Shown in pieces: positions 28,342 to 40,272 of a DNA stretch of 64,000 nt. The position numbers were made by a program, and so were the translations under genes. How positions within the stretch are numbered: the first letter of the stretch is position 1; every line of letters starts with the position of its first letter. Source of the DNA: Gammaproteobacteria bacterium (GTDB lineage: Bacteria; Pseudomonadota; Gammaproteobacteria; HTCC5015); NCBI GenBank assembly GCA_026004975.1, contig BPKE01000001.1, positions 685,788-749,787 on the forward strand, written 5' to 3'. Under the pieces are notes generated by a model. The model had not been told where the DNA came from. It was given only the letters and a program-made list of their open reading frames with translations, and ran no database searches.

Positions 28342-30735
28342 TCAAAAGCGCCAGGTGTAGGGGATGGATCGGCGCGGCGCCTCGCCGGGGCGATGAACCG
28401 CCAGCAGGACGTGCCTGCCGCCGCGCGCATCAAGGCGCAGCCAGCCCATGTTGTTGTGCAGCTCCGCGAGCTGGTCGAAGCCGGACAGTCCCGGCACCCG
28501 CAGACGCGGAACATAGGCGAAGGTTTCGGACACATGCGGCGCCCCCTGGGCGTCGACCTCGTCCCGGTAGGCCCGCTCGCGCACCGCCTCGATGTCTTGG
28601 TCCGGATGGGCTTGCGGTATCACCGTGGTCCGATCGCCGCTGCGCCACCAGTAAAGGCGCTCAGAAGGATTGAATACGCCGGTTTGCAGGACGCTCAGAA
28701 TGAGCCTCATCCCGCCGTACGCTTCGTTCTTGGTGGCGCTGCTGGTGTGTTGCACGATGTCCAACGCCCGACCGTGGTGCTGCAGCCGCGCCGCGCCGCT
28801 GAAGCCGTAATGGACGTCGCCGGAGAGCACCGTCAGGTGGCGCCCGCCCACGGCCGCCACGGCATCGATCACGTCGAAATAACTGTTGGGATCGGCATGG
28901 AACGACTCGACGTCGGCGAGGCGCACGTAGGCCTGCACGGCCTTGCGCAGTTCCACGGCCAGCTCGTCGAGACCGGGCAGCCGGGCGAGGGCCGCGATCA
29001 CCACTTCGGCGTTGCGCAGCAGCGAGGCGCGGCGCCGGGGGTCTTGCACCGCCTCGGACAAGGACACGATCACGCTGCGCAGCCGGGCGAGGAGCATCTC
29101 GGTCTCGGGCAGTATGGCGTCGAGCAAGGCCGTGGCGGCGCTCAAGCGATCGAGCAACAAGGGCCCGATTTGCTGCACGAACTCCAGGCTGTCCAGGCCG
29201 TAGAGCGGCGTCGCGGTCACCAGCAACAGGCGCCGGTCGTCACGGCGGGCCTGTGAGAGCAACGCCCGCAGCCGCCGCCGCTCGGCGGCGTCCATCAGCC
29301 GCGGCGCCGTGTTCACGCGGTAGGCCAGCATCGGATCCACGGCGGGCAGCCCGACGAGCCGCGGCAGGTTCCGGGCCAGGGGAGAGATCGCGGCCAGCAG
29401 CGGACTGAACCGCCGCTGGTGCGCGCGCGTCTGGGCCCGCCGCGTGCGCGTGTTGGCGAACACGGCCGAGGGGCGCGTGGGGGTGCGAAAGGCCCAGCCG
29501 TGATAATGGAGGAATTCGCGTTCCAATCCGGCGCCGCCCTGCATCGGCGCGTTGGCGTAGCTCGCGAGCGACTGCATGAACGACCGGCGGCTCAAGCGGT
29601 CCGGGTCGTTGCCCCAGGCCTGGAACAACCAGAAGGCCGCCAGCGCGTTGGCCATGATGCGCGATCCCGCCGGGCGCCGCGCGACGCGCCGTTGCCAATC
29701 GGCGTTGAGGTTCCAGTCGTCCGTCACCTCGTGGTCGTCGAACATCATGTAGGTCGCCACATTGGCCAGCAAGCGGCGCGCCGCGCCCGTCGCCGCCTGG
29801 AAGTCGCGGACCCGGCGCCGTTCGTCCGCGATCTCCTGCGCCACTTCCTGCAGCGGCCGGCGCGGCCGGATGTCGCGTGCGACCTGTTGCGCCGTCGGCA
29901 GGCTGCGCGGCCAGACGGCCGGGTTCCAGGCCATGAGGTAGGCCGCGGCGAACTCGCCGAAGGTCATGAGGTGATTGGCGGCCTCGCCGCTGGAGAAACC
30001 GGCGGCGCCCTCGACGAACGCCTGCCGTTCCCGGATGCCGAGCCGCTCGGGTCGCGGCGCGCCCGGCAAGGGTTCGGAGCCGCCCATCAGTTCACGCGCG
30101 AGGCCCTGGATGGGCCGGATCAGGGTGTCGGGCACGTCGTCGGCGTAGATCTGGTCGCCGCCGAGCAACAGCACGTGCGGGCGGTGGTGCATGCTGCCGG
30201 CGTTCTGCCGCAACACATGCTCGCCGGCCACGATCGCGTCGGTGCCGTGACCGTGAAACTTGCGGCAACTGCCGTACAGTGCCCGGAAGCCGGGCCGGTT
30301 CGGGTTCTGGATGATGAAGGTCGGGCGGTCGAAGGGCGGCACGACGACGCCTTCGAGCGCACCGAGAAAGGCGAGCCCTTTTTCATCGTCGGCCGCTTCA
30401 CCCCAGCGGACGTCGTAGCCGATGGGCATGTCGTGGGGCAAGCGCGCGTGCCGCAGGCGCGCGGCACGCCGTTCGTGGGTGGTGCTCAGACCGGGCATCG
30501 CCCGCTGGGCGGCGGCCAACAGGTACACGTGGAATCGGGCGGTCACCTGCATGTGGTGCCCGCCCGACCAGGCGTTGAGGCTTTCGGAACGCCGGATCCA
30601 GCGCCCGCCGGCGCGGTCGTGGCCGTAGAGAATCAGGCGCGGCCGGGAAAGCGCCTCGCTGGTGGCGATCCACACCCAGGCGGCGTCCGCCGACACCCGA
30701 CGCACGATCGGGCCGGCGAGCAGTTTCAAGGCCAT
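28342..30735 (-). CDS. PhoD-like metallophosphatase (large form)
   Basis: A 797-residue protein with the metal-site blocks of the alkaline phosphatase D superfamily in order: YGSCRKFHG near 154, LLGGDQIYADDVPD near 190-203, YMMFDDHEVTDDWN near 329-342, and LSGDVHYGFSG near 637-647. The distance between the third and last blocks is long, about 300 residues, filled with an Arg-rich helical insertion. No signal peptide or Tat motif is visible, unlike secreted PhoD; a cytoplasmic location is likely. It starts 6 bases after the stop of the unknown 829-residue gene, so both are one operon. The substrate (phosphodiester or nucleic acid) is unknown. Confidence 0.78.
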   Translation of the reverse strand: MALKLLAGPIVRRVSADAAWVWIATSEALSRPRLILYGHDRAGGRWIRRSESLNAWSGGHHMQVTARFHVYLLAAAQRAMPGLSTTHERRAARLRHARLPHDMPIGYDVRWGEAADDEKGLAFLGALEGVVVPPFDRPTFIIQNPNRPGFRALYGSCRKFHGHGTDAIVAGEHVLRQNAGSMHHRPHVLLLGGDQIYADDVPDTLIRPIQGLARELMGGSEPLPGAPRPERLGIRERQAFVEGAAGFSSGEAANHLMTFGEFAAAYLMAWNPAVWPRSLPTAQQVARDIRPRRPLQEVAQEIADERRRVRDFQAATGAARRLLANVATYMMFDDHEVTDDWNLNADWQRRVARRPAGSRIMANALAAFWLFQAWGNDPDRLSRRSFMQSLASYANAPMQGGAGLEREFLHYHGWAFRTPTRPSAVFANTRTRRAQTRAHQRRFSPLLAAISPLARNLPRLVGLPAVDPMLAYRVNTAPRLMDAAERRRLRALLSQARRDDRRLLLVTATPLYGLDSLEFVQQIGPLLLDRLSAATALLDAILPETEMLLARLRSVIVSLSEAVQDPRRRASLLRNAEVVIAALARLPGLDELAVELRKAVQAYVRLADVESFHADPNSYFDVIDAVAAVGGRHLTVLSGDVHYGFSGAARLQHHGRALDIVQHTSSATKNEAYGGMRLILSVLQTGVFNPSERLYWWRSGDRTTVIPQAHPDQDIEAVRERAYRDEVDAQGAPHVSETFAYVPRLRVPGLSGFDQLAELHNNMGWLRLDARGGRHVLLAVHRPGEAPRRSIPYTWRF

Positions 30736-30741
30736 GCCCCG

Positions 30742-33231
30742 TCAGCCGCCGTCGGCGATCAACAGCCGGTCGTACACGAACCCTTCCGTGGGCACGGTGA
30801 CGTCGAACTCGTCGATGATCGGGTACAGGTCCTGGGGCGACAGGGCGCCGTCGGGCGCCCCGGGAGTACCCCCGACCACGTTGGTGACGGCGTAGTCGGG
30901 CCCCGTGGTCAGACTCGCTTCGCGGCGGCGGAAGTTTTCCACTTCCTCGAGCACCGCCTTCAAGGGCCCGCTGTCCAGGTCGAAGCCCCGGTCGCCCTCG
31001 ATGTGCTTGGCCAGCCAGCGGATCGCCGCGCGCTCCTGCCCCGGACGGATCGGCACGCAGACGCGGACCCAGGGGCTGTTGAGGAACTCGTTGCGCCGCC
31101 GGTCGCCGTCGAGCTGGATGGCCCAACGCAGGGAGCTGCCCAGCGGCGCGGGCTCGCTTTCCGCGGTGATGGCGTAGGACTCGCGCTGGTAACCCGTCGT
31201 GCGCGCCGCGAACCGCGGCTTCCACCAGGAAGGGTGCATGTAGACGAAGATGCCGTTGAGATCGAAAAAGCGGTGGAAGCTTTCCAGCTCCAGCGGCGTG
31301 GGCTCGGACGGCGACAGCGGGTGCGCGAACAGATGGGACACCATCCGGTTCATGATCTCGTAGCGCTCTTCCTGGCGCAGGTCGGCGGCCGGCCGCGGCC
31401 GGATGCGGCTTTGCTCGGTGATCAGCGCGCGCTCGCGCTCGAACTTTTCCTGGAGCAGTTCCTGGGTGAGGGCGGCCACCGCCGCCTCGCGCTTCGCCTC
31501 CCACTCGGCGATGGCCGACGCCGCCGGCGACCAGGTGTAGGTGTAGTTGACGCTCACGCTCTTGCCGTCACCCTTGTGCACCCCCACGTTGACGACGAAC
31601 AAGCCGCTTTCCGGGTCGCGCCCATCGACCCAACTGATGTCGTTCCGGGGCGCCGGGGCATGGTCATCCTTGCCGCCGCCCTCGAGGTCGGTGATGCCGT
31701 CGATGGCCACCGAGTCCACCTCGCGATCGCGCGGCACCACGATGCCGATCGGAACGTACCAGGTGCGCCGTTCCTCGTTCCATTCCAGCAGGGCCGAGAC
31801 GGTTCCCGATTCACGCCCGCCTTCCGGCTTGGGCGGCACCCCCGGCGGGATGTCCGGCACGGCGATGTCGCCCGCGTCGCGGAAGTGCACGAAGCGGCTG
31901 CGCGCCAGACCTTCGCCGGGATTGCGGATGTAGAGCTGCCAGACCATGCGCGGCCCCAGGTCCTGCACCTTCACCCGCACCTTGCGCAGCACGCGGCGCA
32001 AGCCGTAGTTGACGGGCGTGTCTCCGGGGTTGCTGATCACGCGGCGCGTGGAATTGGTCGTGGTGGTCTCGTCGAAGGCCCGCGTCTTGACGGTCACCGT
32101 CTTGCGAATGCGCTCCGAGGCGCGGAACGTCGTTTCCTTCAGGCGCTTGGCGATGCGTTCACGGGTGCGCTGCGAGGTGTTGCTGAAGTTCGTGCTGACC
32201 TCCGCGCCGAACTGGTAGACCCCCACCTGCCCGCTGAAATTGGCCGAGATGGCCACCTCCGAGCTGTTCTGCACCATGGCAGCCGTGCGGTCGGAAATCT
32301 CGTCCAGGTTGCGTTGCTCGCTCGACCGCTCCGTTTCCGTCTCCAGCCCGACCTCGTTGATTTCCTCGAAGGACTGCCGGCGCACGGTTTCCGCGATCAC
32401 TTCCAGGGTTTCGGCCGGTGCAACCGTGAAGCATTGCTCGATGGGACCGAAGCCCTCCTCGGTGTTGAAGTAGAGTTGGCGGTAGTAGTGCGCGATGCCG
32501 ATCGGAGAGAGCGTTTCCTCGACGCGCAGCGGGAAGAAGGCGAACGCCTTCTTCAGCAAGCCGGCGTCGAGCAGCGCGTCGAGACCGGCATCGGGCCGTT
32601 GGAGCCAGGCGTCGACGGTGCTGCCGAAGGACTTCAGCAGCTCGAGGCGCGTCTTGTGGTAATCGAAATCCACCGGCATACCGCGATCATGCGGATTGAG
32701 CACGATCGGAACGGGCCGGCGCGCCGCGAGCGCGTCCGGCTTGACCTGCCCGACGCGGACCGACCGCAGCACGCGCGTGGCCGAGGACGCATCGCCGGCC
32801 AGGTGGGTGTTGACGCCGGACACCGCGAGCGGGGGCGAGGTCGGCGTCCGCGGCGGCAACAGGCCGTGCAGCAACACGCGTTCGCCGACCTGGACGGCCC
32901 TCGGAAATCCCTTGATTCTCAGCGGCTTGGGCTGGACCGCGGCGCCGATCGGGTCGACCGGTTGCGTTGCCAGTTGCCGGTCGATCGCACTGTTCAGGGC
33001 GCGCGGATCCGGCAGTTTCTGGCGGCCCAGATGGACCGTCAGGCCGAGCCGGGCGGCGAGCGGAAGGCCGTCGAACGCCTGCAGCTTCTCGGTCAAGGCG
33101 GTGCGCGAGGCCATGACACTGGCCAGGGTGTTGAGGGCGCTTCCGGAAATCCAGCGCAGGAACAGCGGCTCGTAGGCCGCGACGGTCAGGCTGGCGTAGG
33201 CATCGGTGAACGCCCGTAGCGTCGTCGTCAT
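30742..33231 (-). CDS. Large uncharacterised protein (829 aa)
   Basis: I do not recognise this family. No signal peptide or membrane helix is seen. Residues 1-130 look alpha-helical and then Pro-rich. Residues about 285-400 are unusual: a Ser/Thr/Glu/Arg-rich stretch with ETETERSSEQRNLDEISDR, a small beta-like part (VAISANFSGQVGVYQFGAEV), then a charged helix and TVKTRAFDETTTTNSTRRV. Residues 400-565 appear beta-rich (VQDLGPRMVWQLYIRNPGEG, TWYVPIGIVVPRD). Residues 575-630 form a probable coiled coil (EWEAKREAAVAALTQELLQEKFERERAL). The C-terminal 180 residues are mixed. It has its own promoter and an AAGGAA ribosome site, and is paired with the phosphatase gene. Function unknown; the organisation suggests a structural or scaffold protein. 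Confidence 0.7.
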   Translation of the reverse strand: MTTTLRAFTDAYASLTVAAYEPLFLRWISGSALNTLASVMASRTALTEKLQAFDGLPLAARLGLTVHLGRQKLPDPRALNSAIDRQLATQPVDPIGAAVQPKPLRIKGFPRAVQVGERVLLHGLLPPRTPTSPPLAVSGVNTHLAGDASSATRVLRSVRVGQVKPDALAARRPVPIVLNPHDRGMPVDFDYHKTRLELLKSFGSTVDAWLQRPDAGLDALLDAGLLKKAFAFFPLRVEETLSPIGIAHYYRQLYFNTEEGFGPIEQCFTVAPAETLEVIAETVRRQSFEEINEVGLETETERSSEQRNLDEISDRTAAMVQNSSEVAISANFSGQVGVYQFGAEVSTNFSNTSQRTRERIAKRLKETTFRASERIRKTVTVKTRAFDETTTTNSTRRVISNPGDTPVNYGLRRVLRKVRVKVQDLGPRMVWQLYIRNPGEGLARSRFVHFRDAGDIAVPDIPPGVPPKPEGGRESGTVSALLEWNEERRTWYVPIGIVVPRDREVDSVAIDGITDLEGGGKDDHAPAPRNDISWVDGRDPESGLFVVNVGVHKGDGKSVSVNYTYTWSPAASAIAEWEAKREAAVAALTQELLQEKFERERALITEQSRIRPRPAADLRQEERYEIMNRMVSHLFAHPLSPSEPTPLELESFHRFFDLNGIFVYMHPSWWKPRFAARTTGYQRESYAITAESEPAPLGSSLRWAIQLDGDRRRNEFLNSPWVRVCVPIRPGQERAAIRWLAKHIEGDRGFDLDSGPLKAVLEEVENFRRREASLTTGPDYAVTNVVGGTPGAPDGALSPQDLYPIIDEFDVTVPTEGFVYDRLLIADGG

Positions 33232-33264: not shown

Positions 33265-33292
33265 ACCTTAGAGCTTTGCGGGCCGTTGTCAA
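33265..33292 (-). promoter_or_regulatory. Promoter of the 829-aa protein/phosphatase operon
   Basis: A perfect -35 TTGACA is followed after 16 bases by TAAGGT (weak -10). Transcription would start near 33258, about 27 bases before the ATG, which has AAGGAA upstream. Confidence 0.6.
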
Positions 33293-33395: not shown

Positions 33396-34089
33396 TCAGA
33401 CGCTCAGGTGGTCACGCACCAGCGCGTCGTCCAGTTCAGGCATCGGTCCGTCGGCGACGACCCTGCCCTTGTCCAGGATCACGAAGCGGTCGGCGTTGCG
33501 CCGCGCGAAGGGCAGTTTTTGCTCGACGAGCAGCACGGTCAGGCCCAGCTCGCGGTTGAGCCGGCGGATCACGGCGCCGATCTCGCGGACGATGTTGGGC
33601 TGGATGCCCTCGGTCGGCTCGTCGAGGATCAACAGCCGCGGTTCGAGCACCAGGGCGCGGGCGATGGCCAACTGCTGTTGCTGGCCGCCGGAGAGGTCGC
33701 CGCCGCGCCGCCGGCGCATGCGCGCCAGCACCGGGAACAGCTCGTAGACCCGATCGGGCACGCGCCGGCCGCGGCCGGCGGCGAGCCCCACGCGCAGGTT
33801 TTCCTCGACGGTGAGCAACGGGAAGATGTCGCGCCCCTGGGGCACGTAACCGATGCCGAGCCGCGGCCGGTGCTCGACCGGCCGGCCGAGCAGCTCGACG
33901 CCTTCGAAGCGCACGCTGCCCGAGCGCGCCGGCAGCAGGCCCATGACGGTCTTGAGCAAGGTGGTCTTGCCCATGCCGTTGCGCCCCATCAGGCAGACGC
34001 AGGCGCCGCGGGGCACTTCGAGGTCGATGTCCCAGAGGGTGTGGCTCTCGCCGTAGTACTGATTGAGCCCCAGGATGCGCAGCGCCGGT

Positions 34090-34097
<8 letters not shown>
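33396..34097 (-). CDS. urtE: Urea ABC transporter ATPase UrtE
   Basis: The second ATPase of the high-affinity urea importer, in the branched-chain amino-acid (HAAT) class. Walker A is GRNGMGKTTLLKTVMG, the signature LSGGQQQQLAIARAL, and Walker B LLILDEPTEGIQPNIV. ILGLNQYYGESHTLWDIDLEVPRG and the EGIQP motif are typical of UrtE rather than LivF. It overlaps urtD by 8 bases and ends the urt operon. Confidence 0.94.
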
Positions 34098-34928
<831 letters not shown>

Positions 34929-34932
<4 letters not shown>

Positions 34933-36014
34933 GTCGGGCGACCCTTGCGATGGAGGAAGACGCCGGCGAGCCCTTTCGGCAGGAACAAGGTGACCAGCAC
35001 GAACAAGGCGCCGAGCAGAAACAGCCAGGCTTCCGGCAGCAGGCCGGTGAAGACGGTCTTGGCGTAGTTGACGAGCAGGGCCCCGGCCACGGCGCCCCAC
35101 AAGGTGGCGCGGCCGCCGACGGCGACCCAGATGACCAGCTCGATGGAATTCAGCGGCGAGAACTCGCTGGGGTTGATGATCCCCACCTGGGGCACGTACA
35201 GCGCCCCGGCGACGCCGGCGAGCATGGCGCTGAAGACGAAGATCCACAGTTTGAAGTGTTCGACCTCGTAACCCGCGAAACGCACGCGCGCTTCGCTGTC
35301 GCGGATGGCGACGAGCACCTGGCCGAACTTGGAGGTGACGATGCGCCGCGCCAGCAGGTAAGCCGAGGCGAGCGCCGCCGCGCTGGCGAGGAACAGGCCG
35401 AGGCGGGTGGCGTCGGCCTGCAGGTCGAAGCCGAGGATGTCCTTGAAGTCGGTCAGTCCGTTGTTGCCGCCGAAGCCCATTTCGTTGCGGAAGAAGGCGA
35501 GCATCAGGGCGAAAGTCAGGGCCTGGGTGATGATCGACAGATACACGCCGGTGACCCGCGAGCGGAAGGCGAACCAGCCGAAGACCAGGGCGAGCGCGCC
35601 GGGCACCAGCACGACCATCGCCGCGGCGAACCAGAACTGGTCGAAGCCGTGCCAGTACCAGGGCAACTCTTCCCAGCCGAGGAAGACCATGAAGTCGGGC
35701 AGCACGGGGTGGCCGTAGACGCCTCGGGTGCCGATCTGCCGCATCAGGTACATGCCCATGGCATAGCCGCCCAGGGCGAAGAAGGCGGCGTGGCCCAGGC
35801 TCAGGATGCCGCAGTAGCCCCACACCAGATCGAGGGCCAGGGCGAGCAGCGCGTAGCAGAGGTATTTGCCGAGGAGCGTGACGGTGTAGGTCGACACGTG
35901 CAGGGCATGGCCCTGGGGCACGAGGGCGTTGCCCAGCACGACGAGCAGCGCGCCGGCGGCGAGCGCGCCGAGCAGCCAGCGTGCCGGGCGGTCGAGCAGG
36001 ACGGGCGGGCGCAT
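34929..36014 (-). CDS. urtC: Urea ABC transporter permease UrtC
   Basis: A 361-residue permease of the LivM type with about nine hydrophobic segments (for example LLGALAAGALLVVLGNALV and YLCYALLALALDLVWGYCG). Urea-permease marks are LSLGHAAFFALGGYAMGMYLMRQIG, FFRNEMGFGGNNGLTDFKDILGF and YVPQVGIINPSEFSPLNSIELVIWVAVGGR. The GGNNGLTDF motif separates UrtC from amino-acid permeases. Located between urtB and urtD. Confidence 0.94.
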
Positions 36015-36017
36015 CGT

Positions 36018-37613
36018 TCAGCCCTCCGCGGCGCGGCCGCGCTGAGGGAACACGCCCTGCGGCCGTTTCTGGATGAAGAGGATGATGAACACGAGCACCA
36101 GGATCTTGGCGAGCACGGCGCCGGTGACCGGTTCCATGAACTTGTTGAACACGCCCAGCGACAGCCCGCCGACGAGCGTGCCCCACAGGTTGCCGACGCC
36201 GCCGAAGACCACGACCATGAAGGAGTCGATGATGTAATCCTGGCCGAGGTTGGGGCCGACGTTGGTGAGCTGGCTGAGGGCGACGCCGGCGACACCGGCG
36301 ATGCCGGCACCCAGGCCGAAGGTCAAGGCGTCGACCCGGTCGCTGCGCACGCCGAGCGCGCGCGCCATGGCGCGGTTCTGCGCCACCGCGCGCACTTCGA
36401 TCCCGAGCGCGGTGTAACGCAACAAGGCGAGCAGGGCGAAGAACACGACGAGCGCGAAGGCGAAGATCCACAGCCGGTTGTAGGTGAGCGCCAGCACCGG
36501 GTTGATCTGCCAGGCGCCGCTCAACCAGGAGGGCGTGACCACGGCGACGTTCTGTGCGGAGACGAAGCTGCGCACGCTCTGCTGCAGGATCAGGCTGATG
36601 CCGAAGGTCGCGAGCAGGGTCTCCAGCGGGCGGCCGTAGAGGTGGCGGATCACGCCGCGTTCGATGAGCACGCCGACGGCGCCCGAGAACAGGAAGGCCG
36701 CCGGCACGGCGATCAGCAACGACCATTCGATCCACTGCGGAAACAGGCGCTGCACGGCGTAGGTGGTGTAGGCGCCGAGCATGATCAGCTCGCCGTGGGC
36801 CATGTTGATCACGCCCATCACGCCGAAGGTGATCGCCAGACCGATGGCGGCGAGGACCAGGATGGAGCCCAGGCTCAGGCCGAAGAGCAGCTTTTCGACG
36901 AAAGCGTAAGCGTCCAGGCGGGTCTGGATGCCGCGCAGGGCGCGCGTCGCGGCCGCGGCGACCGCGGGATCGGCGTCGTTCTCGGCGAGCCGCGCCAACG
37001 CGCCGCGCACCTGCGGCTCCAGGCGGCCGCGCAGGGTGTCGATCGCCGCCAGGCGGCGCTCGGATTCGGGCGCGTCCAGGTCCACGAGCGCCACGGCCGC
37101 GGCCAACGCGGCGCGGGCGGCGCGGTCCGGCTCGCTCTCGAGCCGCGGCCGCAAGACCTCGGCTTCGGCGGCGTCGAGCTCGCCGATGAGCGTTTCGGCG
37201 GCGCGGCGCCTTTCGGCGGCCTCGGCCGCGTCGAGGGCGCGCAAGGCCAGAAGAATGCGCAGGCGCTTGCGCAGGGCGTTGTTGCTGCCGATGCGCTTGA
37301 CGGCGTCGGCGTCGACCCGTCCGCGCGGCGCGCCGTCCAGCGCCCGCTCGGCGGCATGGGGCGCTCCAGCCTCGGCCAGGATCAAGACCTCGCCGCCGTC
37401 CCGCTCGACGTAGAGCCGGCCGTCGAGGTAGGCCTGGAGGATCACCGCCACGCGCGGATGATCGAGGGCGGCGAGCGTTTCGACCGCCTCGGCCCGCTCG
37501 CGCAAACCGGCGCCGGCCAGATGCTCGAGGGCCGCGGCCAGAGCGGTCTCGTCGGCCGCCGCGACGGCCGCGCCGGCGGGAATCAAAGCGAGAATCCACA
37601 ACAACACGATCAT
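36018..37613 (-). CDS. urtB: Urea ABC transporter permease UrtB with N-terminal helical domain
   Basis: This 531-residue permease has the N-terminal extension usual for UrtB: a signal-like segment (MIVLLWILALIPAGAAVAA) and about 220 residues of HEAT-like helices (ALAAALEHLAGAGLRERAEAVETLAAL and repeats). The LivH-type permease follows: SLGSILVLAAIGLAITFGVMGVINMAHGELIMLGAY, RGVIRHLYGRPLETLLATFGISLILQQ, and GLGAGIAGVAGVALSQLTNVGPNLGQDYIIDSFMVVV. The start is the ATG giving MIVLLW; an earlier ATG adds nine residues. A GC hairpin separates it from urtA. Confidence 0.93.
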   Translation of the reverse strand: MIVLLWILALIPAGAAVAAADETALAAALEHLAGAGLRERAEAVETLAALDHPRVAVILQAYLDGRLYVERDGGEVLILAEAGAPHAAERALDGAPRGRVDADAVKRIGSNNALRKRLRILLALRALDAAEAAERRRAAETLIGELDAAEAEVLRPRLESEPDRAARAALAAAVALVDLDAPESERRLAAIDTLRGRLEPQVRGALARLAENDADPAVAAAATRALRGIQTRLDAYAFVEKLLFGLSLGSILVLAAIGLAITFGVMGVINMAHGELIMLGAYTTYAVQRLFPQWIEWSLLIAVPAAFLFSGAVGVLIERGVIRHLYGRPLETLLATFGISLILQQSVRSFVSAQNVAVVTPSWLSGAWQINPVLALTYNRLWIFAFALVVFFALLALLRYTALGIEVRAVAQNRAMARALGVRSDRVDALTFGLGAGIAGVAGVALSQLTNVGPNLGQDYIIDSFMVVVFGGVGNLWGTLVGGLSLGVFNKFMEPVTGAVLAKILVLVFIILFIQKRPQGVFPQRGRAAEG

Positions 37614-37661
37614 GTCGCAACACTCCGTCGCGCCGCGCACGGCGCCGTTCCGGTCGGACGG

Positions 37662-37697
37662 GAAGCCCCGGCGCCGCGCGCGGCGCCGGGAGGCTTC
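37662..37697. other. Strong GC hairpin between urtA and urtB
   Basis: Two GAAGCC/GGCTTC and CCGGCGCCG/CGGCGCCGG arm sets pair around a CGCG loop, giving about 16 base pairs. No U-tract follows on the minus strand. It probably protects the urtA 3' end or dampens read-through, raising the binding protein above the membrane parts. Confidence 0.65.
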
Positions 37698-37780
37698 ACC
37701 TCATTGGACGGCCGTCCGTGGCCACCGCGTCCTGCGGTCGCGTCCCGGCGGCTCCTGCCGAAAGGGCCCGGGGAGGGGGG

Positions 37781-39061
37781 TCAGTCGCTCGAGCCCATGC
37801 AGCTCTCGGTGACGAGGTTGTACTTGCCGCAGCGGATCGGATCGGTCCAGTCGGCGATCAGGTTCTTGCTTTCCGGCAGGTAGTCCGACCAGGCGTCGCC
37901 GGGCACCAGACCCTCGGTGCGCCAGACGACTTCGAACTGGCCGTCGTCCTGGATCTCGCCGATCAGCACCGGCTTGGTCAGGTGGTGGTTGGGCAGCATC
38001 TCGGCCACGCCGCCGGTCAGGTTCGGGAATTTCTGCCCGACCATGGCGTCGATCACCTTGTCCGGGTCGGTGGTCTTGACCTGCTCGACGGCGTTCACCC
38101 ACATGTTGAAGCCGATGTAGTGCGCTTCCATGGGGTCGTTGGTGACGCGCTTCTTGTCGCCGATGTAGGCCCACCACTTCTCGATGAAGGCGCGGTTCTC
38201 CGGCGTGTCCACGCTCATGAAGTAGTTCCAGGCCGCGAGGTGGCCGACCAGGGGCGCGGTGTCGATGCCCGAGAGCTCCTCTTCACCCACCGAGAAAGCC
38301 ACCACCGGGATGTCCTCGGCGGAGATGCCCTGGTTGGCGAGCTCCTTGTAGAACGGCACGTTGGCGTCGCCGTTGATGGTCGAGACCACCGCGGTCTTCT
38401 TGCCGGCGCTGCCGAACTTCTTGATCTCGGCGACGATAGACTGCCAGTCGGAGTGACCGAAGGGCGTGTAGTTGATCATGATGTCCTCGCTCTTCACGCC
38501 CTTGTCTTTGAGGTACTGCTCGAGGATCTTGTTGGTGGTGCGCGGGTAGACGTAGTCGGTGCCCGCCAGCACCCAGCGCTCGACCCCCAGCTCGTTCATC
38601 AGGTAGTCCACCGCCGGGATGGCCTGCTGGTTCGGCGCCGCGCCGGTGTAGAACACGTTGCGGCTGGACTCCTGCCCCTCGTACTGGACGGGATAGAACA
38701 GGATGCCGTTGAGTTCCTCGAACACCGGCAACACGCTCTTGCGCGAGACCGAGGTCCAGCAACCGAAGACGACGGCGACCTTTTCCTTGGCGAGCAGCTC
38801 GCGGGCTTTTTCCGCGAACAGGGGCCAGTTCGAGGCCGGGTCGACGACGACGGGCTCGAGCTTCTTGCCGAGCAGGCCGCCCTTCTTGTTCTGCTCCTCG
38901 ATGAGCATGAGGACGGTGTCCTTCAAGGTGGTCTCGCTGATCGCCATGGTGCCCGACAGCGAGTGGAGGATGCCGACCTTGATGGTGTCGGCGGCGCGCG
39001 CCGGCGCGGCCCAGGCCGCCGCCAGGGCGGCCGCGGTGACGATGGTGCGAAGCATGGACAT
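37781..39061 (-). CDS. urtA: Urea ABC transporter substrate-binding protein UrtA
   Basis: The 426-residue periplasmic urea-binding protein. A signal peptide (MSMLRTIVTAAALAAAWAAPARA) is followed by DTIKVGILHSLSGTMAISET. Further family segments are VFGCWTSVSRKSVLPVFEE, LFYPVQYEGQESSRNVFYTGA, NQQAIPAVDYLMNELG and TNDPMEAHYIGFNMWVNAVEQV. The Tyr-Glu-Gly and Cys-Trp-Thr-Ser parts mark urea/amide binding rather than amino acids. It follows the porin gene by 32 bases, consistent with one message. Confidence 0.95.
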   Translation of the reverse strand: MSMLRTIVTAAALAAAWAAPARAADTIKVGILHSLSGTMAISETTLKDTVLMLIEEQNKKGGLLGKKLEPVVVDPASNWPLFAEKARELLAKEKVAVVFGCWTSVSRKSVLPVFEELNGILFYPVQYEGQESSRNVFYTGAAPNQQAIPAVDYLMNELGVERWVLAGTDYVYPRTTNKILEQYLKDKGVKSEDIMINYTPFGHSDWQSIVAEIKKFGSAGKKTAVVSTINGDANVPFYKELANQGISAEDIPVVAFSVGEEELSGIDTAPLVGHLAAWNYFMSVDTPENRAFIEKWWAYIGDKKRVTNDPMEAHYIGFNMWVNAVEQVKTTDPDKVIDAMVGQKFPNLTGGVAEMLPNHHLTKPVLIGEIQDDGQFEVVWRTEGLVPGDAWSDYLPESKNLIADWTDPIRCGKYNLVTESCMGSSD

Positions 39062-39093
39062 GGCGTTCTCCCCTCTGCGTGACGATGAACGGT

Positions 39094-40098
39094 TCAAAGC
39101 TGCAACTGCACGCCGAAATTCACGAAGCTGCGTGCGTCGCCGAACTCCGGATCGACCGCGCCGAGCACCAGCGACAAGCGCGCGTCGTGCCCGTCGAGAA
39201 TGCGGTTGAGCGACAGCTCGCCGATGGTTTGTTCGCCGGCCGGGTCGCCGGTGAAATCCAGCGTCTGCAGGCGCACGGTCGGCTGCCAGCCGTCGAACAA
39301 GACGCCGGCGAGGACGAAACCACCCGAACCGTCGGTGCCGGCGAATTCGTCGTAGCTGTAGTAGGCCCCCTCGAGGGTCAGCACCGGCCCGCCGAGGTCG
39401 GTTTCGTACAACACGTCCAGGTTGGCGCCGGTGCCGCCGTCGAAGCTCTGCACGGCCAGGCCGAAAGCGAGCACGTTCTTGGTGCCGAAATAGGTGCTGC
39501 TGTTGTAGTAGCCGGGCTCCGGATCGAGCAGGTTGAGCACCACGCGCCCGGCGAACAGCGTCTCGTCGCCGCCGCCGGGGATGAGCGCGTCGGGCCCTTC
39601 GAACAGGCCGACCTGGTACTTGAAGGCGCCGCCGCCGGTCTGTCCCCAGACCGCCACGCCCTCGTCGCGCCCGGCGAAGATGGCCGGATACCGCTGCGCC
39701 GCCGGGAAATTCCAGTGACCGAGGAAATACGGCCCGGACAGGTTGGACCGGTCCGAGGGCGGCAGGAAGCGCCCCGCCCAGATGTTGAACGCGTCGGTGA
39801 ATTCGAAGCGGGCGATCACGTCCAGCGCCTCGATGGAGTTGGTCGCGGCCTCGTAGCCGGTGTTGAAGGTGAAGCCCACGCCCTCGGTGACCTCGCCGCC
39901 GGTGTACAGGCGGACGCTGTCCAGATCGAAGTTCAGGGCGTCCTCCCCGCCCGGCGCGCCGTCCTCGATGAAGTTGACGCTGGTGCGCAGGCCGGCGCCG
40001 ACGGTCAAGCCGTCGGCCGCGGCCAGGGCGCCGGCAGCCAGCAAGACGATGCCCAACACGCCGCGCCGGCACAGGTCCAACGAAATGGTTCTGTTCAT
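39094..40098 (-). CDS. Outer-membrane porin, probable urea/nitrogen porin
   Basis: A 334-residue beta-barrel protein. The signal peptide is MNRTISLDLCRRGVLGIVLLAAGALAAA. The mature part is rich in alternating aromatic/hydrophobic strands (LTVGAGLRTSVNFIED, NIWAGRFLPPSDRSNLSGPYF, GVAVWGQTGGGAFKYQVGLF, LTLEGAYYSYDEF) and ends with a short strand, FVNFGVQLQL, with a hydrophobic last residue. It resembles phosphate-selective (OprO/P-like) porins. As the first gene of the urtABCDE operon under a nitrogen-type promoter, it is inferred to pass urea or short amides. Confidence 0.78.
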   Translation of the reverse strand: MNRTISLDLCRRGVLGIVLLAAGALAAADGLTVGAGLRTSVNFIEDGAPGGEDALNFDLDSVRLYTGGEVTEGVGFTFNTGYEAATNSIEALDVIARFEFTDAFNIWAGRFLPPSDRSNLSGPYFLGHWNFPAAQRYPAIFAGRDEGVAVWGQTGGGAFKYQVGLFEGPDALIPGGGDETLFAGRVVLNLLDPEPGYYNSSTYFGTKNVLAFGLAVQSFDGGTGANLDVLYETDLGGPVLTLEGAYYSYDEFAGTDGSGGFVLAGVLFDGWQPTVRLQTLDFTGDPAGEQTIGELSLNRILDGHDARLSLVLGAVDPEFGDARSFVNFGVQLQL

Positions 40099-40172
40099 GT
40101 TGCGAGTTTCCCCACACGGTTGCATGGAACGTGCGGAGTCAGGCGGCGCCTCCGCGGTCGGCGTGTCCGGGG

Positions 40173-40187
40173 GCAAGAACGATGCCA
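40173..40187 (-). promoter_or_regulatory. Sigma-54 promoter of the porin-urtABCDE operon
   Basis: On the minus strand TGGCATCGTTCTTGC matches the RpoN consensus TGGCAC-N5-TTGC at 9 of 10 defined positions, with the invariant GG and GC exactly spaced. Transcription would begin near 40162, about 64 bases before the porin ATG. Confidence 0.82.
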
Positions 40188-40272
40188 AGGCGGGCGAAAC
40201 GCTTCAAATCAAGGGCTTGCGCACACAACGCCGCCGCCCGCACCGATCGGCGGCGGGCGGCGGCGGCGCTGG

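What the first reader, a model, noticed from the sequence alone, without database searches (positions are those of the whole stretch)
28342..33231. Candidate new two-gene system: unknown 829-residue protein with a large PhoD-like phosphatase
The two genes are 6 bases apart, share a dedicated promoter with a perfect TTGACA, and neither has an export signal. The phosphatase keeps all metal blocks but carries an Arg-rich insertion of about 300 residues before the last block. The partner has no fold I recognise. A cytoplasmic PhoD-type enzyme tied to a large scaffold-like protein is unusual and could be a nucleic-acid or second-messenger processing, or defence, module. It is flanked by ordinary metabolic genes and both frames are clean.
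Basis: partly seen in the sequence, partly recalled or inferred. Interest (0 to 1): 0.7.

Follow-up and report, generated by a model that had tools for sequence, protein, structure and literature searches.

The report
Phosphatase paired with unknown partner protein
Two adjacent genes, one for a PhoD-type metal phosphoesterase and one for a large protein of a family that no library searched here contains, are inherited together in distant bacteria; relatives of the large protein sit next to quite different enzymes, which suggests a shared carrier that works with exchangeable enzymes.

Summary
The two genes are real: PhoD-like phosphoesterase 28342-30735(-), 797 aa; partner 30742-33231(-), 829 aa; gap 6 bases. 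The pair is a true unit. All four genome contigs homologues of the partner (two Alcanivorax, two actinobacteria, 54-66% identical) have this PhoD directly downstream. Both genes form single clades (100/99) with matching topology, across two phyla. The partner matches no Pfam, NCBIfam, PHROGs, PADLOC or PDB entry. It belongs to a rare, uncharacterised superfamily (core of about 525 residues; Pseudomonadota, Actinomycetota, Cyanobacteria). Other members are followed by different genes: a patatin phospholipase, a LodA quinoprotein oxidase with LodB, a Mur-ligase-like protein, a weak Het-C match, a tail-collar protein, or unknowns. Best explanation: a conserved carrier or scaffold with interchangeable enzymes; here a Cys-type PhoD of the Streptomyces chromofuscus PLD subfamily, probably attacking a phospholipid or envelope phosphodiester. 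Steps beyond gene content are inference. Nothing points specifically to nucleic-acid, second-messenger or defence functions. Both structure models were too poor to use, apart from one partner domain.

The parts
30742..33231 (-). Partner protein P0002, 829 aa, unnamed superfamily
   Evidence: ORF; no Pfam/NCBIfam/PHROGs/PADLOC/PDB match; 54-66% identical homologues L002-L005
30934..32511 (-). Conserved core of the superfamily, residues 241-766
   Evidence: BLAST among members down to E 1e-88; alignments and tree
32179..32268 (-). Amphipathic beta-hairpin-like segment, residues 322-351, between two predicted helices
   Evidence: Alternating hydrophobic pattern, p=0.003 by shuffling here, below 0.01 in 9 of 17 members; helices 302-320 and 353-374 in a low-confidence model
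31516..31824 (-). Beta-sandwich domain, residues 470-572
   Evidence: Only well-predicted part of the model, pLDDT mostly 70-84; sub-threshold Foldseek hits include H-type lectins and tail fibres (E 0.04-0.6)
28342..30735 (-). PhoD-like metallophosphoesterase P0001, 797 aa
   Evidence: ORF; PF09423 E=7.5e-6, 25.7 bits, just under the cut-off of 27
30265..30267 (-). Cys157 of GSCRK, equivalent of the Fe3+ ligand Cys-180 of B. subtilis PhoD
   Evidence: Alignments; ligand role from PMC4223295
30136..30159 (-). GDQIYADD metal motif (D194, Y197)
   Evidence: Invariant in the paired PhoDs
29713..29739 (-). DDHEVTDDW metal motif
28807..28821 (-). GDVHY metal motif
28915..29181 (-). Helical lineage-specific insert (residues about 519-607), absent from the actinobacterial PhoDs
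33265..33292 (-). Promoter-like site: TTGACA (33287-33292), 16-base spacer, weak -10 TAAGGT (33265-33270)
   Evidence: Sequence; not scored as a promoter by the scan

Best explanation
A two-gene module: a conserved carrier or scaffold protein (829 aa) and an enzyme that it positions or delivers. In the wider superfamily the enzyme is exchangeable; in this clade it is a Cys-type PhoD phosphoesterase. Proposed mechanism: the two proteins are made together from one transcript and form a complex. The partner gives targeting or assembly through its beta-sandwich and a helix/amphipathic-hairpin/helix element that could contact a membrane. The PhoD, with its Fe/Ca centre, cleaves a phosphodiester, most likely a phospholipid or envelope polymer as in S. 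chromofuscus PLD and B. subtilis PhoD. Because alternative partners include a phospholipase and an H2O2-producing oxidase family with antimicrobial members, the likeliest use is antagonism towards other cells after release by lysis or an unknown route. Shown: co-inheritance, conserved metal motifs, superfamily, changing neighbours. Inferred: complex, substrate, membrane contact, antagonism.
For: 4 of 4 close homologues of the partner have this PhoD immediately downstream, in Alcanivorax (10-base gap) and in actinobacteria (ORFs overlap). PhoD-linked partners form one clade (100/99) and linked PhoDs form one clade (100/99) with the same branching. Neighbouring genes beyond the pair differ between lineages, and only 2 of 46 Alcanivoracaceae carry it, so the pair appears to move as a unit. 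Superfamily members with other downstream genes: patatin E 2.4e-22 with overlapping ORFs (L052); LodA_N E 9.7e-61 plus a flavoprotein in two species (L070, L071); Mur ligase E 3e-22 (L053); Het-C-like E 0.002, below cut-off (L054); tail collar E 6e-15 (L072); unknown proteins (L010, L012, L075, L076). The listed downstream genes were largely non-homologous in an all-against-all BLAST (one weak link, E 5e-6). PhoD motifs conserved; the Cys subfamily includes S. chromofuscus PLD (PMC4223295). LodA-family oxidases are antimicrobial (PMC4417212). Amphipathic hairpin pattern.
Against: No physical interaction or activity is shown. The AlphaFold models are poor (pLDDT 39 for both), so no fold supports a carrier or membrane role, and H-lectin similarity is sub-threshold. 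Some partners (Mur ligase, collar protein) do not fit a membrane-attack theme. Embleya and Nonomuraea members have no obvious adjacent partner. No secretion signal, and no consistent contractile injection or type VI sheath in these genomes, so a release route is missing. The same PhoD subfamily also occurs without the partner.
Confidence: 0.45

Rival explanations
1. Cytoplasmic nutrient or phosphate-metabolism pair: the PhoD releases phosphate from an internal organophosphate and the partner is a structural scaffold.
For: PhoD enzymes are phosphate-releasing phosphodiesterases (PMC4223295); urea-type transporter genes lie next to the pair in the window.
Against: Neighbours are not conserved; distribution is very patchy; relatives of the partner pair with a lipase and an amino-acid oxidase.
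Confidence: 0.2
2. Anti-phage defence module: the large protein is a sensor and the exchangeable enzyme (PhoD, patatin) a membrane- or nucleotide-degrading effector.
For: Patchy, apparently transferred distribution; one conserved large protein with variable enzymes resembles known sensor/effector modularity; patatin is a common defence effector (general knowledge).
Against: No PADLOC match, no NTPase or sensor domain, no defence genes seen next to the pair in any of the five loci; LodA with LodB and a tail-collar protein are unlikely effectors.
Confidence: 0.15
3. Toxic enzyme with a protective or inhibitory partner: the 829-aa protein keeps the PhoD inactive until release.
For: Strict co-inheritance with the partner gene first; the partner is the more conserved of the two (66% against 46% identity to Alcanivorax).
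Against: The partner is far larger than usual inhibitors; the PhoD subfamily exists alone in many genomes.
Confidence: 0.1
4. Chance neighbours: two unrelated genes side by side.
For: Each family also occurs without the other.
Against: Same order and spacing in 5 of 5 genomes across two phyla, with congruent single clades.
Confidence: 0.02

Closest known systems
PhoD family (B. subtilis PhoD, S. chromofuscus phospholipase D; PF09423)
   Same: All metal-binding blocks, including the Cys Fe3+ ligand of the PLD-containing subfamily
   Different: No signal peptide, a lineage-specific helical insert of about 100 residues, Pfam score just under cut-off, obligate partner gene in this clade
PhoD + DUF6603 pairs (Salinigranum plasmid, G266; also a Streptomyces plasmid)
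   Same: Same signal-less PhoD subfamily (weakly supported as sister in the tree), placed before a large partner gene of unknown function
   Different: The partner is DUF6603 (PF20248, E 4e-139 and 3e-97) and lies downstream; DUF6603 was not detected in P0002
LodA/LodB amino-acid oxidase operons
   Same: A P0002-superfamily gene stands directly upstream of lodA-lodB in two species (L070, L071)
   Different: Unrelated enzyme; the described lod operon has no such upstream partner in the passages read (PMC4417212)
Carrier-plus-variable-effector systems (polymorphic toxins, contractile injection systems)
   Same: Organisation: one conserved large protein with changing enzymes
   Different: No homology found, no sheath genes in most carriers, no immunity gene recognised

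Membership tests
PhoD family (PF09423) | Fe/Ca ligand blocks: Cys or Asp, GDxxY, DDHE with acidic/Asn partner, GDVH | tested here: met
   GSCRK, GDQIYADD, FDDHEVTDDW, GDVHY aligned with 19 relatives; roles from PMC4223295
PhoD family (PF09423) | Profile score over the curated cut-off | tested here: inconclusive
   25.7 bits against 27; the relative L015 passes with 40.5
PhoD family (PF09423) | Phosphodiesterase activity | not testable with these tools
   Needs purified protein
P0002 superfamily (unnamed) | Homologous core of about 525 residues | tested here: met
   E 3e-57 to Embleya P0003; its Alcanivorax homologue reaches Aulosira at 1e-11 and, through it, the others; tree
Known anti-phage defence system | Match to a defence protein model | tested here: not met
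   PADLOC, no match at E 0.1
Contractile injection or type VI cargo | Sheath genes in the carrying genome | tested here: not met
   PF04984 in 4 of 14 and PF05943 in 2 of 14 genomes; window genome none, but it is only 64% complete
Secreted PhoD phosphatase | Export signal | tested here: not met
   Hydropathy scan and N-terminal sequence
H-type lectin domain | Significant fold or profile match in residues 470-572 | tested here: inconclusive
   Foldseek E 0.18-0.21, prob 0.72-0.75; no Pfam match

The most novel reading that the evidence does not exclude
The 829-aa protein founds an undescribed family of bacterial enzyme carriers, found in at least three phyla, that insert into or coat a target membrane and deliver whichever enzyme is encoded next to them (PhoD phosphoesterase, patatin phospholipase, LodA oxidase), without a dedicated secretion machine.
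Probability: 0.25. Interest if true: 0.85.

Novelty: new variant of a known kind. Interest (0 to 1): 0.55.

Why it matters
A large, conserved protein family that Pfam, NCBIfam, PHROGs and PADLOC all lack stands beside a changing set of enzymes, at least three of them well known. If it is a carrier, it would give a role to many 'hypothetical proteins', suggest how signal-less enzymes such as these PhoDs and LodA-type oxidases are placed, and offer a modular targeting device. The hypothesis is directly testable with two genes.

Tried and rejected
AlphaFold on both proteins gave pLDDT of about 39 (5 and 4 sequences in the alignments) and is unusable except for residues 470-600 of the partner. Foldseek against PDB and viral models gave nothing below E 0.001. 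Viral contigs (three scans) and phage records hold no relative, so a phage origin was dropped. PADLOC and PHROGs gave nothing useful. Sheath families were searched to test a contractile-injection link; no consistent link. Weak hits G162 and G383 were judged likely false; L056, L074 and L077 are a separate, more distant group of giants and were not used for the argument. Literature searches for DUF6603, PhoD with injection systems, PhoD with antibacterial toxins, and Alcanivorax PhoD found nothing. The hairpin statistic is not from independent sequences.

Full report
Observation. The two minus-strand ORFs are as reported: PhoD-like 28342-30735 (797 aa) and partner 30742-33231 (829 aa), 6 bases apart. 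Three details need correcting. The distance between the DDHE and GDVH motifs is 307 residues against 195-231 in unpaired relatives, so the insertion is about 95-110 residues, with Arg at 13.0% against 12.2% for the whole protein; the two actinobacterial orthologues lack it (212-214) and Alcanivorax has a longer, different one (362). The TTGACA hexamer is perfect, but the -10 is weak (TAAGGT, spacer 16) and the consensus scan reports nothing. Lack of an export signal is typical of this PhoD subfamily rather than special to this gene.

Families. The PhoD scores 25.7 bits with PF09423 (cut-off 27) and has every metal block. Its GSCRK Cys corresponds to the Fe3+ ligand Cys-180; PMC4223295 states that PhoD proteins split into a Cys and an Asp subfamily and that the Cys one holds B. 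subtilis PhoD and S. chromofuscus phospholipase D. The partner has no match in Pfam (only a meaningless VWA hit at E 0.2), NCBIfam, PHROGs, PADLOC or PDB.

The pair is a unit. A scan of 84,980 species' genomes returned four close homologues of the partner (54-66% identical): Alcanivorax nanhaiticus, Alcanivorax sp. DG881, Catelliglobosispora koreensis and Rhizocola hellebori. Each has this PhoD directly downstream, with a 10-base gap or overlapping ORFs; the genes further out differ between the lineages. The pattern-based scan finds close relatives only, so four is a lower bound. Both genes are under purifying selection in the close pairs. In a tree of 20 PhoDs the five paired ones form one clade (100/99), and in a tree of 17 superfamily members the PhoD-linked partners form one clade (100/99), with the same branching: window with Alcanivorax, the two actinobacteria together. 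Within Alcanivoracaceae only 2 of 46 genomes carry the partner; it is absent from the other genomes searched in the window's family. This fits horizontal transfer of a two-gene cassette.

PhoD without partner. Eleven other gammaproteobacterial genomes, Salinivibrio and Roseibium have the PhoD subfamily without a P0002-like gene in the flanks read. Some flanks were short because contigs ended. Salinigranum and G266 PhoDs, which join each other (97/93, but on long branches) and fall weakly next to the paired clade, are followed by DUF6603 proteins. So this PhoD subfamily has acquired large partners more than once.

Partner without PhoD. Embleya (28%, E 3e-57) led to Aulosira and Nonomuraea, and profile searches of Pseudomonadota to G257, G599, G286, G579, G471, G172, G025, G134, G184, G748 and G678. 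Members outside the PhoD clade match each other down to E 1e-88 over about 600 residues with unrelated N-termini. It is a rare family: 6 of 399 sampled genomes in the phylum with the A4 profile (including two weak hits), 7 of 274 in the class with the A5 profile. Downstream genes in the same direction: patatin (L052; E 2.4e-22; ORFs overlap), LodA with a flavoprotein (L070, L071), Mur-ligase-like (L053), weak Het-C (L054), tail-collar (L072), and unknown proteins of 362, 579, 877 and 450 aa (L010, L012, L075, L076). They are largely unrelated to one another (only the 579-aa protein of L012 and the 792-aa protein of L053 match, E 5e-6). In Embleya and Nonomuraea no partner is obvious, in G471 it is unclear, and in G184 the gene is broken.

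Anatomy of the partner. Residues 241-766 are the conserved core. Residues 322-351 have an alternating hydrophobic pattern with a Gly-rich turn, between predicted helices; the pattern exceeds shuffles (p < 0.01 in 9 of 17 members, mean z 2.1; the members are related, so these are not independent). Residues 470-572 are a predicted beta-sandwich, the only confident part of the model; its Foldseek hits include H-type lectins and phage tail fibres but none is significant. The rest of both models is not interpretable.

Interpretation. The simplest reading is a conserved carrier or scaffold with exchangeable enzyme genes. Co-inheritance, superfamily membership and the changing neighbours are shown; a physical complex, membrane contact, the phospholipid or envelope substrate, and antagonism are inferred. 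The antagonism idea rests on the patatin and LodA neighbours; LodA-family oxidases are antimicrobial through H2O2 (PMC4417212). No release route was found: no signal peptides, and sheath genes occur in only 4 (PF04984) and 2 (PF05943) of 14 carrying genomes. Defence, nutrient use and enzyme inhibition remain possible rivals.

Novelty. PhoD is well known. The partner family and its exchange of enzymes were not found in the libraries or papers searched here, which are not exhaustive. I file the system as a new variant of a known organisational kind (conserved large protein plus variable enzyme) because the mechanism is not shown; a categorically new carrier is the novel case at probability 0.25.

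Noticed in passing
L070:6960-12867 and L071:5112-11017: LodA/LodB-type quinoprotein oxidase genes directly downstream of a P0002-superfamily gene in two related species.
   Followed up: partly
L052:7161-11581: Superfamily gene overlapping a patatin phospholipase gene; a PAP2-family gene and a subtilase gene lie just upstream.
   Followed up: partly
L015:4965-11122, L042:2530-8264, L019:21210-29873: PhoD genes followed by DUF6603 genes in a haloarchaeal plasmid, a gammaproteobacterium and a Streptomyces plasmid; the Streptomyces PhoD has lost the Cys and other metal residues.
   Followed up: partly
L012:10485-11090, L055:4871-6148, L072:11630-12961: Proteins of about 200 residues with no Pfam match (those tested), some duplicated, beside several superfamily genes.
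   Followed up: no
L073:7337-10339: Superfamily gene broken into three ORFs in G184, next to a divergent 834-aa gene with a weak pre-toxin TG match.
   Followed up: no
L056:4810-9681, L074:7221-11081, L077:435-5981: Giant proteins (1286-1848 aa), related to each other, with a weak match to the superfamily core; one has a helix-hairpin-helix N-terminus.
   Followed up: no
window 33396-40188 (-): Urea-type ABC transporter genes directly upstream of the pair; not linked to it in other genomes.
   Followed up: no
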